This document shows, one piece after another, positions 35,852 through 59,434 of a DNA stretch of 64,000 nt (position 1 is its first letter; each line of letters starts with the position of its first letter). A model generated the notes under the pieces. That model was not told where the DNA came from. It did not search any database and worked only from the letters and a program-made list of their open reading frames with translations. The translations under genes were made by a program, and so were the position numbers. Source of the DNA: Comamonas aquatica NBRC 14918 (GTDB lineage: Bacteria; Pseudomonadota; Gammaproteobacteria; Burkholderiales; Burkholderiaceae_C); contig NZ_BBJR01000046.1 in assembly GCF_000739875.1 (NCBI RefSeq), positions 1 to 64,000 on the forward strand, given 5' to 3'.

Positions 35852-35928
35852 TGGTCGGCGTGGCGGGATTCGAACTCGCGACCCCTTGCACCCCATGCAA
35901 GTGCGCTACCAGGCTGCGCTACACGCCG
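35852..35928 (-). tRNA. tRNA-Pro(GGG)
   Basis: 77 bases including an encoded CCA. Acceptor CGGCGTG pairs with CACGCCG; anticodon loop TTGCATGGGGTGCAA carries GGG, and the T arm contains GTTCGAATC. Identical over its length to the copy at 36033. Confidence 0.97.
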
Positions 35929-36032: not shown

Positions 36033-36109
36033 TGGTCGGCGTGGCGGGATTCGAACTCGCGACCCCTTGCACCCCATGCAAGTGCGCTACCAGGCTGCGC
36101 TACACGCCG
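36033..36109 (-). tRNA. tRNA-Pro(GGG), second copy
   Basis: Same 77-base sequence as the gene at 35852, with anticodon GGG and encoded CCA. It lies 104 bases beyond the ihfA stop on the same strand. Confidence 0.97.
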
Positions 36110-41700: not shown

Positions 41701-41711
41701 AAATTGAAAAC

Positions 41712-41728
41712 GCTACGAAAAGCGTAGC
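41712..41728 (-). repeat. Hairpin in the thrS-infC spacer
   Basis: GCTACG-AAAAG-CGTAGC, followed on the minus strand by GTTTTCAATTT, just before the infC ribosome binding site. It could be a weak terminator or a remnant of the dispersed repeat (TAGCTGC lies beside it). Confidence 0.45.
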
Positions 41729-41774
41729 TGCTTGCATTGATGAGATCGGCGCGGACTGGCCGCGCCTTACTGCA

Positions 41775-43694
41775 TCAGACTTTGTTGTGGATATCGCTGG
41801 TCAGCAGTTCAATGAACGCCTCCACCGACATGACGCCCAAGTCCTTGTTACCTCGGGCACGCACAGCGACGGTGCCTGCCGCTTTTTCCTTGTCGCCGGC
41901 GACCAGGATGTAAGGCAGCTTCTGCAATGCATGCTCGCGTATTTTATACGTGATCTTTTCGTTGCGCAGATCAGACACGACCTTAAGGCTTTGATGGGGC
42001 AATGCTTTTTGCACCTTTGCCACAACTTCCTTCACGTAATCGGCCTGTGCGTCCGTGATGTTGAGCACCGCCACCTGCTCTGGCGCCAGCCACACGGGCA
42101 AGGCGCCCGCGTACTGTTCGACCAAAATACCGATGAAACGCTCCAGCGAACCGACGATGGCACGGTGCAGCATCACGGGGCGGTGGCGTGCGCCATCTTC
42201 GCCCACGTACTCGGCATCCAGACGCTCCGGCATAGAGAAGTCCACCTGGATGGTGCCGCACTGCCACTGGCGACCCAACGCATCCTTGAGGGTGTACTCG
42301 ATCTTGGGGCCGTAGAAGGCACCATCGCCCACCGCGATCTGGTAGTCGCAACCCGATGCCTTCAGTGCATCGAACAAGGCCTTTTCGGCCTTGTCCCAGA
42401 TCTCGTCCGAGCCGATGCGTGCTGCGGGGCGGGTGGCCACCTTGTAGATAATGTCGATGAAGCCGAAGTCGGCATACACCTTCTGCACCAGCTGGTTGAA
42501 GTTCAGCACTTCCTGCTGGATCTGGTCTTCGGTACAGAAGATGTGACCATCGTCCTGCGTGAAGCCGCGCACGCGCATGATGCCGTGCAAGCCGCCAGTG
42601 GGCTCATTGCGGTGGCACTGGCCGAATTCACCATAGCGCAGCGGCAATTCGCGGTAGCTCTTGATGCCCTGCTTGAAGATCAGGATGTGCCCGGGGCAGT
42701 TCATGGGCTTCAAGGCGTAGTCGCGCTTCTCGGACTCCGTCACGAACATGTTGTCGCGGTACTTGTCCCAGTGACCGGTCTTCTCCCATAGCGTCTTGTC
42801 CAGGATCTGGGGACCCTTGACTTCTTCGTAGCAGTTGTCGCGGTAGATGCGGCGCATGTACTGCTCCACCTCCTGCCACACGCGCCAGCCCTTGGGGTGC
42901 CAGAACACAGTGCCGGGCGAGCATTCATCGATGTGGTAGAGGCCCAGCTCGCGCCCCAGGCGGCGATGGTCGCGCTTTTCAGCTTCCTCGATGCGGGTGA
43001 TGTAAGCCTGCAGGTCCTTCTTGTCGGCCCAGGCTGTGCCGTACACACGCTGCAGCTGCTCGTTCTTGGCATCGCCACGCCAGTAGGCACCTGCCAGCTT
43101 GGTCAGTTTGAAGACCTTCAGGAAACGGGTATTGGGCACGTGGGGGCCACGGCACATATCGACGTATTCCTGGTGGTAGTACAAGCCCATGGCCTGCTCG
43201 TCCGGCATGTCCTCAACCAGACGCAGCTTGTAGTCTTCGCCACGCTCCTGGAACACCTTGATGACGTCGGCGCGCGGGGTCATCTTCTTGATCACGTCAT
43301 AGTCCTGCGCGATCAACTCCTTCATACGCGCTTCAATCGCCGCCATATCTTCGGGCGTGAAGGGACGCTCGTACGAGATGTCGTAATAAAAGCCTTCGTC
43401 GATCACAGGGCCGATCACCATCTTGGCGGTCGGATACAGCTGCTTGACGGCATGCCCCACCAAGTGGGCACAGGAGTGGCGAATGATGTCCAGTCCGTCC
43501 TGGTCCTTCGGCGTGATGATTTGCAGCTGCGCGTCTTGCTCGATCAGATCGCAGGCATCCACCAAACGGCCATTGACCTTGCCAGCCACCGTGTTTTTGG
43601 CCAGGCCAGGACCAATCGATGCAGCCACCTGCATGGGCGTGACAGGGCCGTCAAATTCGCGTTGCGAGCCGTCTGGAAGTGTGATCTTTAGCAT
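41775..43694 (-). CDS. thrS: Threonyl-tRNA synthetase
   Basis: Class II synthetase of 639 aa that charges tRNA(Thr). Domain order: TGS (about 1-62, [19 protein letters not shown]), editing domain (65-225) with [14 protein letters not shown] and the HxxxH/C zinc set, catalytic core (245-535) with motif 2 around [20 protein letters not shown] and motif 3 [13 protein letters not shown], and the anticodon-binding domain (540-639). Start 43694. Its leader carries a threonine-rich mini-ORF and a terminator hairpin. It heads the infC-rpmI-rplT-pheST-ihfA cluster. Confidence 0.97.
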
Positions 43695-43738
43695 GAAAAT
43701 CCTTGGAAACTTGTCTGTGACAGAAGCGCGCAGTGACT

Positions 43739-43768
43739 GAAAAAACAAAGCGCGGACATGTCCGCGCT
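43739..43768 (-). terminator. Attenuator-like terminator in the thrS leader
   Basis: AGCGCGGACATGTCCGCGCT, a perfect 20-base palindrome, followed on the minus strand by TTGTTTTTTC and then the thrS ribosome binding region about 45 bases later. It sits between the thrS start and a threonine-rich leader ORF. Confidence 0.8.
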
Positions 43769-43808
43769 GAAGGGGCCAACAACTGTAGGCAGGCGCGAAC
43801 ACACAGCC

Positions 43809-43853
43809 TCAATGGCTGCGAGAGAACTCCGTGCTCGTCGTTCGCGGTGTCAT
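43809..43853 (-). CDS. Putative thrS leader peptide (14 aa, four Thr)
   Basis: ATG at 43853 opens MTPRTTSTEFSRSH and stops with TGA at 43809. Four of 14 residues are threonine (codons 2, 5, 6 and 8: ACA, ACG, ACG, ACG). The peptide ends 40 bases before a strong terminator hairpin. CGCGAA in codons 3-5 can pair with TTCGCG further on (minus strand near 43799-43794), and that segment can alternatively pair with the left arm of the terminator, giving the usual 1:2, 2:3, 3:4 choice of amino-acid attenuators. The AAAGG upstream is an acceptable Shine-Dalgarno sequence. Confidence 0.65.
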   Translation of the reverse strand: MTPRTTSTEFSRSH

Positions 43854-43915
43854 AACCAGATTGCCTTTCTCGCTCTTGTTGATTAAGTATTTGCGCATTT
43901 TAACGCTGCAACAAC

Positions 43916-43944
43916 AAAAAAGCCCGCAGTCAACGACTGCAGGC
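43916..43944 (-). terminator. Intrinsic terminator of aceA
   Basis: GCCTGCAGTC-GTT-GACTGCGGGC (one mismatch) followed by six Ts on the minus strand, 60 bases beyond the aceA stop and just before the thrS leader. Confidence 0.85.
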
Positions 43945-44006
43945 CAAGCCATATCACCCCCAACCGGCGCAGAACCCCACCTTGCTCTGCGCCGGCAGGT
44001 GCTCAA

Positions 44007-58403: not shown

Positions 58404-58465
58404 ATGGGCCGGCAAGTCCCCCTGGGCGTTTGGGTCTTGCACGCAGGCCATAATCGCAGCTTTTG

Positions 58466-58685
58466 TTTTCCGTGGGAGAGCGAGGCAGCCACACCGGGCC
58501 GGCCTCCGCCGAAGGCGCAAACTCCCATAATCGCTCAGGCACCCAGCACCACGGAACACACATGCCGACTGGAGAGCAGCCGGGACCTTGGCACAAGGTC
58601 AGCCGGCTCACCGAAGGGGCAAGCGCGCGCATGACGAACATGCGCCGTGCAAAAACTCTCAGGTAAAAGGACAGCGGGAGAGGCT
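58466..58685 (+). promoter_or_regulatory. Tandem glycine riboswitch
   Basis: Two consecutive glycine aptamers. The first (about 58470-58554) has closing arms CCGTG/CACGG, GGGAGAG and the core CCGCCGAAGGCGCAAACTCC then CTCAGGCA. The second (about 58564-58680) has GGAGAG, CACCGAAGGGGCAAGC and AAAAACTCTCAGGTAAAAGG ACAG. Both carry the conserved CTCAGG(C/T)A and GAAGG elements. The expression platform overlaps the ribosome binding site (GGGAGAGG) of the downstream gene, so translation control by glycine is likely. Confidence 0.95.
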
Positions 58686-58690
58686 CATCC

Positions 58691-59434
58691 ATGCCCCCAT
58701 GGCAGCTGCTGCATTGCAGGCCTGGGCGTGTGGGTCTCACCCTTGTGCGCCCATGGGCGCTGCCTGCCGTGTCCGTCCTGTCCGATTTCCTGCACTCCGC
58801 CGCCAGCGTCCAGCTGGACGTCATCCTCGTCATCTACCTGATCGCCATCACGGCCGAAGCCATGTCCGGCGCGCTGGCCGCCGGGCGGCGCAACATGGAC
58901 ATCTTTGGCGTGGTCGTGATCGCCTTCGTCACCGCCCTGGGTGGCGGCACCATCCGCGACATGGTGCTGGGCAACTACCCCATCGGCTGGACCCAGCATC
59001 CGGCCTATGTCTACCTGGTGGTGTCTGCGGGCCTCTTGACCACCGTCATTGCACGCTACATGCAACGCATGAAACATGTGTTCCTGCTGCTGGATGCCAT
59101 GGGGCTGATTGCCTTCTCGCTGATCGGCAGCAACGTGGCCATCAAGCTGGGGTATGACCCGCTGGTGGTCGTCATGGCTGGCATGATCACCGGCATCAGC
59201 GGCGGCATTCTGCGCGATGTGCTGTGCAACCAGGTGCCCGTGGTCTTCCGCCGCGAGCTGTATGCCAGCGTCTCCATGCTGGTCTGCCTGCTCTACCTGG
59301 GCCTGCAGGCGCTGGAGGTGTCGATCGGCATCAGCACCGCCCTGTGCTTTGCCGGGGGACTGGGCCTGCGCCTGGCCGCCATCCGCTTTGGCTGGCGCCT
59401 GCCCGTGTTCTCCTACCAGCAGCGCTGGGAGTGA
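58691..59434 (+). CDS. TRIC/UPF0126 family membrane protein (probable glycine transporter)
   Basis: Inner-membrane protein of 247 aa with about seven helices. The family's two internal repeats each end in the characteristic GGG-x-x-RD: TALGGGTIRDMVLGNYP and GISGGILRDVLCNQVP. Annotated as TRIC cation-channel-like; related YadS/YicG proteins appear to move glycine, which fits the glycine riboswitch directly upstream. ATG 58691 is placed 7 bases after GAGAGG; the GTG at 58769 has no ribosome binding site. mnmC follows. Confidence 0.9.
   Translation: MPPWQLLHCRPGRVGLTLVRPWALPAVSVLSDFLHSAASVQLDVILVIYLIAITAEAMSGALAAGRRNMDIFGVVVIAFVTALGGGTIRDMVLGNYPIGWTQHPAYVYLVVSAGLLTTVIARYMQRMKHVFLLLDAMGLIAFSLIGSNVAIKLGYDPLVVVMAGMITGISGGILRDVLCNQVPVVFRRELYASVSMLVCLLYLGLQALEVSIGISTALCFAGGLGLRLAAIRFGWRLPVFSYQQRWE

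What the first reader, a model, noticed from the sequence alone, without database searches (positions are those of the whole stretch)
43739..43853. Threonine leader peptide and attenuator ahead of thrS
A 14-codon ORF (MTPRTTSTEFSRSH) with four threonine codons lies 40 bases before a strong terminator hairpin in the thrS leader. CGCGAA inside its codons 3-5 (plus-strand 43841-43846) can pair with a downstream TTCGCG (43794-43799), and that segment can instead pair with the left terminator arm (43761-43767), the exact 1:2 / 2:3 / 3:4 layout of ribosome-stalling attenuators. If real, threonine limitation would raise thrS and perhaps infC-rplT-pheST-ihfA. E. coli thrS is instead controlled by ThrRS binding its own mRNA.
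Basis: partly seen in the sequence, partly recalled or inferred. Interest (0 to 1): 0.75.

Follow-up and report, generated by a model that had tools for sequence, protein, structure and literature searches.

The report
Threonine-sensing leader peptide before thrS
A tiny threonine-rich leader gene followed by a conditional stop signal sits in front of the gene for the enzyme that loads threonine onto its tRNA; the layout is that of a classic amino-acid attenuator, it recurs in many related bacteria, and it stands where distant relatives such as E. coli and Pseudomonas use a different control.

Summary
It is not chance: the core ATGACACCGCG(A/G)A recurs in 105 of 137 thrS leaders of the family and named relatives; a 19-base core is found in 134 of 200 family genomes, once each; Thr codons beyond codon 6 are tenfold enriched in frame (148/792 against 12/695 and 13/695). 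The apical stem covaries. The antiterminator is supported in the family, not separately outside it. The E. coli-type ThrRS operator, found in 24 of 25 Pseudomonas-type leaders, is essentially absent. The same leader precedes two distinct ThrRS lineages, even within the window's genus, which favours ribosome sensing over ThrRS binding. Best reading: a threonine attenuator of thrS, predicted, not measured. Control of infC and downstream genes is doubtful. A thrS leader peptide is in print for Streptomyces lividans; I found none for this group.

The parts
43897..43902 (-). TAAAAT, likely -10 box of the thrS leader promoter
   Evidence: sequence; a box of the form TA-N-(A/C/G)-AT within 75 nt before the leader start in 77 of 97 relatives (median distance 40 nt), 13 of 97 after shuffling; no good -35, not listed
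43864..43868 (-). AAAGG, Shine-Dalgarno-like site of the leader ORF
   Evidence: sequence; GAAAGGC is conserved in the family alignment
43809..43853 (-). leader ORF MTPRTTSTEFSRSH with four Thr codons
   Evidence: one search lists it as the end of a longer mechanical ORF 43809-44006
43840..43846 (-). region 1, CGCGAAC (codons 3-5)
   Evidence: pairs with region 2
43804..43818 (-). apical stem of the 1:2 hairpin (CAGCC 43818-43814, GGCTG 43808-43804), stop codon TGA in its loop
   Evidence: 5 of 6 pairs change on both sides in alignment A1, 30 sequences; stop position
43793..43800 (-). region 2, GTTCGCGC, the switch segment
   Evidence: can pair with region 1 or region 3
43760..43767 (-). region 3, left arm of the terminator and 3' arm of the antiterminator
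43739..43768 (-). intrinsic terminator hairpin and T tract
41775..43694 (-). thrS, threonyl-tRNA synthetase (639 aa), the controlled gene
   Evidence: Pfam TGS, tRNA_SAD, tRNA-synt_2b and anticodon-binding domains

Best explanation
It is a ribosome-dependent transcription attenuator of thrS. RNA polymerase starts just upstream and a ribosome begins the 14-codon leader. With enough charged tRNA-Thr the ribosome reaches the stop codon, which sits in the apical loop 8 nt before region 2; it covers region 2 there, or leaves and lets 1:2 form, so the 3:4 terminator forms and transcription ends near 43740. When charged tRNA-Thr is short the ribosome waits at a Thr codon on top of region 1; region 2 is free, pairs with region 3 (antiterminator) and thrS is transcribed. 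Shown here: the parts, their conservation, the Thr bias in frame, covariation of the 1:2 apical stem, and folding predictions. Inferred: actual termination, stalling and the response to threonine.
For: Thr is the one amino acid enriched in short upstream ORFs in all three sets: 64/85, 37/90 and 24/43 leaders against 1.8, 3.0 and 1.7 shuffled; Val (30/90) and Ser (21/90) exceed shuffles in the order set only, Val probably from the tRNA-Val gene upstream. Thr at codon 2 (part of the selection) and codon 5 in 97 of 97 and at codon 6 in 81 of 97; ACN from codon 7 on 148/792 in frame, 12/695 and 13/695 out of frame (sequences are kin, so counts are not independent). One relative has ACG instead of ACA at codon 2, still Thr (L218). 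The residue before the core Thr is R, L or P in different families while Thr stays. The 19-base core occurs once in each of 134 matching genomes of 200, reversed control 0. Apical stem: 17 doubly changed cells against 3.9 shuffled, 0 of 500 as high; 95.6% of 1:2 cells paired, 30-40% when slid. Stop codon 8 or 9 nt before region 2 in 26 of 34 leaders, window included. Own region 1 and own mid region pair better than swapped ones, p = 0.0005 (146 elements). Folding: without a ribosome 1:2 plus terminator; downstream of a ribosome at codon 2, 5, 6 or 8, up to the left arm, 2:3. ThrRS operator absent. Same leader before two distinct ThrRS lineages.
Against: No expression data. 2:3 is only moderately supported: at least 6 bp of the left arm paired under a stalled ribosome in 85 of 96, but 68.0 expected after shuffling, and one of four sequence groups shows no excess (22/29 against 20.8); in the 37 elements of other families own 2:3 is not better than swapped (p = 0.18). 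P1a and the core of the terminator do not vary in the close set, so they say nothing about pairing. The segment with the apical stem folds better than its shuffles at p 0.05 in 13 of 34 (median z -1.8). Up to the left arm 2:3 is the best fold even with no ribosome, and with the whole terminator transcribed 3:4 is the best fold again for stalls at codons 5, 6 and 8 (not 2), so the model needs co-transcriptional kinetics. 14 of 94 family leaders lack such an ORF, 10 of these keeping a hairpin by eye. GGTTATGACACCGCGAAC is conserved beyond what Thr coding needs.
Confidence: 0.85

Rival explanations
1. ThrRS binds its own leader RNA, as in E. coli, and the short ORF is incidental.
For: thrS is a known case of this control in E. 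coli (passages of PMC3858243).
Against: Hairpins with a Thr-anticodon-like loop within 110 nt of thrS: 24 of 25 Pseudomonas-type leaders and 13 of 28 further class loci, but 0 of 43, 4 of 90 and 2 of 85 in the Burkholderiales sets (shuffled expectation 0.4, 0.8, 0.9); of these six hits four are the terminator hairpin, one (L104) looks like chance and one (L152) is unclear (reading by eye). The leader is kept in front of two different ThrRS lineages. The in-frame Thr bias is unexplained.
Confidence: 0.05
2. The leader ORF acts through translation: its ribosome opens or closes the thrS start site or protects the mRNA, and the hairpin is mainly a stability element.
For: some family members keep the hairpin without the ORF, so the hairpin has a use without the peptide.
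Against: the hairpin is followed by a T tract in nearly all aligned leaders, the left arm can pair with region 2, and the stretch between hairpin and thrS start varies in length and sequence.
Confidence: 0.06
3. A conserved RNA leader that senses something else, with the peptide a by-product of the conserved nucleotides.
For: GGTTATGACACCGCGAAC is almost invariant at the base level, including synonymous sites.
Against: Thr codons beyond that core are tenfold enriched in frame, and all four synonyms are used in the ORFs; other families replace the core (MRPPTT, MFRTRTTT, MNTNTTRTTTT) but keep Thr; no Rfam family reaches its cut-off.
Confidence: 0.04

Closest known systems
Amino-acid leader-peptide attenuators (trp, his, thr operons recalled; pheST of gamma-proteobacteria named in a passage of PMC1262725)
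   Same: short translated ORF rich in the cognate codon, 1:2, 2:3 and 3:4 pairings, intrinsic terminator before the gene
   Different: gene controlled is thrS, which in E. coli is controlled otherwise; no relation to the Rfam Thr_leader was found (17.4 bits against a cut-off of 55, and that match lies at the aceA terminator)
thrL before thrS of Streptomyces lividans (passages of PMC8079986)
   Same: annotated Thr leader peptide in front of thrS
   Different: Actinobacterium; 18 aa (MKRVRPFLETTPGFVPAR) with two Thr, leaderless start, and the authors found no clear Rho-independent terminator; no alternative pairing was described in the passages seen
E. coli thrS translational operator bound by ThrRS (passages of PMC3858243)
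   Same: controls the same gene, autogenous logic
   Different: protein-bound hairpins at the ribosome site; anticodon-like hairpin essentially absent in the Burkholderiales leaders scanned
T-box leaders of Gram-positive thrS (recalled; listing)
   Same: responds to uncharged tRNA-Thr and works by transcription termination
   Different: direct tRNA binding, no peptide; no T-box match in the window
His leader peptides before hisZ and a hisS paralogue of bacilli (passages of PMC2965389)
   Same: leader peptide in front of a synthetase-family gene, sensing system swapped between lineages
   Different: other amino acid and phylum; the word thrS does not occur in that paper's main text

Membership tests
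Ribosome-dependent leader-peptide attenuator | short ORF with start, SD-like site and stop before the gene | tested here: met
Ribosome-dependent leader-peptide attenuator | excess of codons for the amino acid of the controlled gene, in frame | tested here: met
Ribosome-dependent leader-peptide attenuator | intrinsic terminator between ORF and gene | tested here: met
   (by sequence and folding only)
Ribosome-dependent leader-peptide attenuator | 1:2 hairpin that involves the ORF, supported by covariation | tested here: met
   apical stem yes, basal stem invariant; swap test p = 0.0005
Ribosome-dependent leader-peptide attenuator | mutually exclusive 2:3 antiterminator | tested here: inconclusive
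   present in the window; swap test p = 0.0005 over all, 0.0075 in family and named sets, 0.18 in other families alone; 85 of 96 against 68.0
Ribosome-dependent leader-peptide attenuator | termination relieved when the amino acid or its charged tRNA is limiting | not testable with these tools
   no expression data
E. coli-type ThrRS operator | hairpin with Thr-anticodon-like loop next to the thrS ribosome site | tested here: not met
   window leader (L082, in the order set) is not among the hits
T-box leader | match to the Rfam T-box model | tested here: not met
   no match at gathering score in the window nor at E 5 in 43680-43940
Rfam Thr_leader (RF00506) | score above the curated cut-off | tested here: not met
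   17.4 bits, cut-off 55

The most novel reading that the evidence does not exclude
Control of thrS was swapped in evolution: the ThrRS-bound anticodon-mimic operator seen in many other Gammaproteobacteria (in the GTDB sense) is replaced by a threonine leader-peptide attenuator across much of Burkholderiales, and by a different-looking Thr leader (MSTT...) in Xanthomonadaceae. The attenuator is a unit apart from its gene: in the window's lineage the thrS coding region was exchanged for a ThrRS of another lineage, nearest in the tree to Xanthomonadaceae and Pseudomonas, while the native leader stayed in place and was kept. Relatives with small genomes appear to have dropped the peptide and mostly kept the hairpin.
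Probability: 0.6. Interest if true: 0.65.

Novelty: new member of a known kind. Interest (0 to 1): 0.5.

Why it matters
thrS is a textbook example of translational autocontrol by a synthetase. A lineage-wide change to attenuation would show that the same gene can pass from protein-RNA recognition to ribosome sensing, and that such a leader can survive replacement of the gene behind it. It also gives an annotation rule for many Burkholderiales genomes and a simple native reporter of threonine charging.

Tried and rejected
Rejected: a chance ORF; ThrRS operator; T-box or a known Rfam leader; a sensor of Arg (codon 4 is CGA in 94 of 97 and CGG in 3, but other families have Leu or Pro there).

Weak or corrected: the first duplex test against shuffles had little power in GC-rich leaders (p at most 0.05 for 1:2 in 26 of 68 family, 9 of 33 named and 6 of 47 order elements, and for 2:3 in 21, 7 and 2 of the same). 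My first automatic calling of elements (157 of 218) held false hits, such as the tail of aceA and ORFs read through tRNA-Val, and missed true ones, so I do not use that number; one search leaves out the aceA tails. The 148 elements and the 146 come from that calling filtered by a peptide motif and may hold a few false hits (for example L144, L148). The regex count for other families (36 of 81 leaders, 14 of 35 family-level groups) holds at least one doubtful row (L124, far upstream) and misses some visible ones (L111, L127, L135). Core counts: 105 of 137 in the last 330 bases, 103 of 137 with a T before the ATG in the last 320 bases. Note 2 quotes 27 of 34 for the stop position; the recount is 26 of 34.

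Sampling: one search was capped (the best 80 of at least 587); of its 80 loci 43 were treated as Burkholderiales, 10 as Xanthomonadaceae (9 scored, L023 left out) and 27 as other gamma (25 scored, L074 and L080 left out). In the order set I fetched 90 of the 293 genomes with a match, partly the most similar and partly picked by family, so it is not random. In the family set I fetched 90 of 110; 85 remained after removing duplicates and genomes already in the order set. In the class set loci were given for 30 of 113 matching genomes; 28 were scored (L172 is the window itself, L287 was dropped because ThrRS coding seems to reach upstream of its match). In one search, 6 of 103 leaders were dropped because my pattern did not find the terminator end; by eye a hairpin is visible in five, weak in L056. 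In alignment A1 I used 30 of the 34 sequences of that group and left out L039, L060, L198 and L224, whose layout differs. In one search I had labelled L085 and L087 as the window's ThrRS type beforehand; the tree puts them in the other type.

Papers: ten searches of the open-licence library. Their listings show no thrS leader peptide in proteobacteria by title or start of abstract. On opening passages of three listed papers I found that PMC8079986 annotates a thrL before thrS in Streptomyces lividans, that PMC2330054 is unrelated and that PMC1262725 names trpS, leuS and pheST attenuators but not thrS. This prior annotation made me lower the interest from 0.55 to 0.5. The paper most likely to hold a prior prediction, Lopatovskaya, Seliverstov and Lyubetsky 2010, was seen only as a reference and could not be read; I cannot exclude that it lists thrS. 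Supplementary tables of PMC2965389 were not readable here.

Full report
Observation. On the minus strand the region between aceA and thrS reads: a TAAAAT box (43902-43897), an AAAGG (43868-43864), the ORF MTPRTTSTEFSRSH (43853-43809), GTTCGCGC (43800-43793), a hairpin AGCGCGGACATGTCCGCGCT (43768-43749) with TTGTTTTTT, and the thrS ATG at 43694. A terminator-like hairpin lies behind aceA (43945-43921), so the leader most likely has its own promoter.

Chance. I collected thrS upstream regions from 43 named Burkholderiales contigs, 85 genomes of the window's family and 90 genomes of the order. An ORF with an SD-like site and at least three Thr in eight codons occurs in 24, 64 and 37 of them, against 1.7, 1.8 and 3.0 in dinucleotide shuffles, aceA tails left out. 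In the order set Val (30 of 90, shuffled 4.0) and Ser (21 of 90, shuffled 10.8) also stand above shuffles; I ascribe Val to the tRNA-Val gene that often lies just upstream (tRNA-Val(GAC) found in 8 of 8 such loci checked).

Conservation. ATGACACCGCG(A/G)A is found in 77 of 94 leaders of the family and 28 of 43 named ones. Three more family leaders hold variants: MTPRTSTLRLTRLIGR with a synonymous second codon (L218) and MQIFRTSLPTS (L247), both, and MTTRTRRSPARVERAAA (L253). The pattern GGTTATGACACCGCGRACT is present in 134 of 200 family genomes, once in each, with no match of the reversed control; the window itself is not among them because its fifth codon is ACG. The leader is single-copy in the window's genome. 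Outside the family, ORFs of the same kind with the same or a changed core (MTPLT, MRPPTT, MVPPTT, MFRTRTTT, MNTNTTRTTTT) are found in 36 of 81 leaders, in 14 of 35 family-level groups (regex call with a few errors, see Tried and rejected).

Coding. In 97 ORFs of the family and named sets, Thr stands at codon 2 (part of the selection) and codon 5 in all 97, at codon 6 in 81. From codon 7 to the stop ACN makes 148 of 792 triplets in frame, and 12 of 695 and 13 of 695 in the other frames; 92 of 97 ORFs have at least three Thr; all four Thr codons occur. The sequences are related, so these are not independent events, but the difference between frames is hard to explain without translation and selection for Thr.

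Structure. In 34 leaders with the window's type of region 2, window included, the stop codon lies 8 or 9 nt before it in 26; in 24 of 34 all three bases of the stop are unpaired in the predicted apical fold, and the paired bases are written in 31 different ways; 13 of 34 of these segments fold better than their shuffles at p 0.05, median z -1.8. On alignment A1 (30 of the 34) the basal 1:2 stem never varies, while five of six apical pairs have changes on both sides; 17 doubly changed cells against 3.9 expected, none of 500 shuffles as high; slid partners pair in 30-40% of cells against 95.6%. The terminator is paired in 90% of cells, six of nine pairs never vary. In a swap test with 146 elements own region 1 and own mid region pair better than exchanged ones (p 0.0005), and so do own mid region and own left arm (p 0.0005; family and named 0.0075; other families 0.18). 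Folding the region downstream of a ribosome waiting at codon 5 puts at least six pairs between mid region and left arm in 85 of 96, 68.0 expected from shuffles. So 1:2 and 3:4 are firm, 2:3 is probable.

Window thermodynamics. Without a ribosome the leader folds into 1:2 plus the terminator (-50.8 kcal/mol). Up to the left arm, with the ribosome at codon 2, 5, 6 or 8, 2:3 is the best fold; it is also the best fold there with no ribosome at all, so 1:2 and 2:3 compete closely. With the full terminator, 2:3 stays the best fold for a stall at codon 2, but for codons 5, 6 and 8 the terminator is the best fold again, so antitermination would depend on the order of synthesis, as in known attenuators. 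With the ribosome at the stop codon the terminator forms.

What it replaced. A hairpin with a Thr-anticodon-like loop (for example GTGGTCTCTCGTATGGATCAC) stands next to thrS in 24 of 25 named Pseudomonas-type leaders and 13 of 28 further class loci, but in 0 of 43, 2 of 85 and 4 of 90 Burkholderiales leaders; of these six hits four are the terminator hairpin, one looks like chance and one (L152) is unclear. In E. coli ThrRS binds hairpins at the thrS ribosome site and blocks the ribosome (passages of PMC3858243). Xanthomonadaceae also lack the hairpin (0 of 9). Of 11 Xanthomonadaceae-like loci, 9 have a conserved GCGACATG followed by a short Thr peptide (MSTTTAHR, MDTTRAHR, MSTINV and the like), 7 of these 9 with a hairpin and T tract behind it by eye; L050 has MSTRPFS without a visible terminator, and L021, not matched by the search string, has MTRTFDI.

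Another ThrRS behind the same leader. In a ThrRS tree the window protein, two family genomes, Aquincola, two Variovorax, Pseudacidovorax and Xenophilus fall on one side of a 100/100 branch with Xanthomonadaceae and Pseudomonas, while other Comamonadaceae, among them two genomes of the window's own genus (G093, G133), fall on the other side with most of the remaining Burkholderiales; one f45 genome of the order is on the first side, on a long branch (the named set gives a like picture). All eight rows of the window's type carry the MTPRT leader, as do G093 and G133. The simplest reading is exchange of the coding region with the leader kept. Against haste: the tree is unrooted, the eight rows form a grade rather than one clade, so donor and direction are open, and by plain identity the window protein is as close to the other Comamonadaceae type (66.6-75.3%) as to Xanthomonadaceae (70.0-71.8%). 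A leader that works with either ThrRS fits ribosome sensing better than binding by the co-evolved protein.

Loss. 17 of 94 family leaders lack the exact core; setting aside the three variants, 14 have no leader ORF of this kind, and 10 of these keep a hairpin by eye. The 17 genomes are smaller (median 3.1 against 4.5 Mb, Mann-Whitney p 2e-5, not corrected for kinship). On the ThrRS tree the named ORF-less rows need seven changes, so loss probably happened more than once. In one Polaromonas assembly from a metagenome the start codon reads ATA (L052).

Reach of the control. In Cupriavidus metallidurans a start site for thrS is listed under the RNA gene Rmet_R0015, and infC, rpmI and ihfA have their own (table passage of PMC9045368; that R0015 is the tRNA-Val gene is my inference). 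In the window two hairpins lie between thrS and infC. I therefore limit the claim to thrS.

Known and new. Leader-peptide attenuators of synthetase genes are known (pheST, trpS, leuS: passages of PMC1262725), and a thrL before thrS was annotated in Streptomyces lividans, with two Thr and no clear terminator (passages of PMC8079986). For Burkholderiales I found no report in ten searches of an open-licence library, and one likely prior prediction could not be read. Verdict: a predicted threonine attenuator of thrS, confidence 0.85 for the mechanism as a whole, less for the exact antiterminator.

Noticed in passing
L019, L023, L024, L034, L044, L047, L054, L065, L262: Xanthomonadaceae thrS leaders hold a different short Thr ORF (MSTTTAHR, MDTTRAHR, MSTINV and the like) after a conserved GCGACATG, in 7 of these 9 followed by a hairpin and T tract by eye.
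   Followed up: partly
window 41775-43694: The window's ThrRS falls on the Xanthomonadaceae and Pseudomonas side of a 100/100 branch, unlike that of two genomes of its own genus: a probable gene exchange, direction open.
   Followed up: partly
L006, L009, L010, L014, L030, L053, L057, L226 and others: thrS leaders without the ORF but mostly with the AGCGCGG-type hairpin shortly behind a -10-like box; the family genomes without the exact core are smaller.
   Followed up: partly
L095, L098, L150, L169, L121, L163, L264, L090: a tRNA-Val (GAC) gene lies directly upstream of thrS in these 8 of 8 loci checked, and by eye in many others, within and outside Burkholderiales.
   Followed up: partly
window 41710-41770: two hairpins between thrS and infC, one resembling the thrS terminator hairpin (GGCGCGGCCAGTCCGCGCC) without a T tract, one GCTACG...CGTAGC with GTTTTC.
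   Followed up: no
window 35852-35928 and 36033-36109: two identical tRNA-Pro (GGG) genes close together on the minus strand.
   Followed up: no
window 58463-58561: a glycine riboswitch aptamer (56.5 bits) before an ORF at 58691-59434 with the Pfam domain Gly_transporter.
   Followed up: partly
window 43840-43857: GGTTATGACACCGCGAAC is nearly invariant in the family even at synonymous sites and before the start codon, more than coding and the 1:2 stem need.
   Followed up: no
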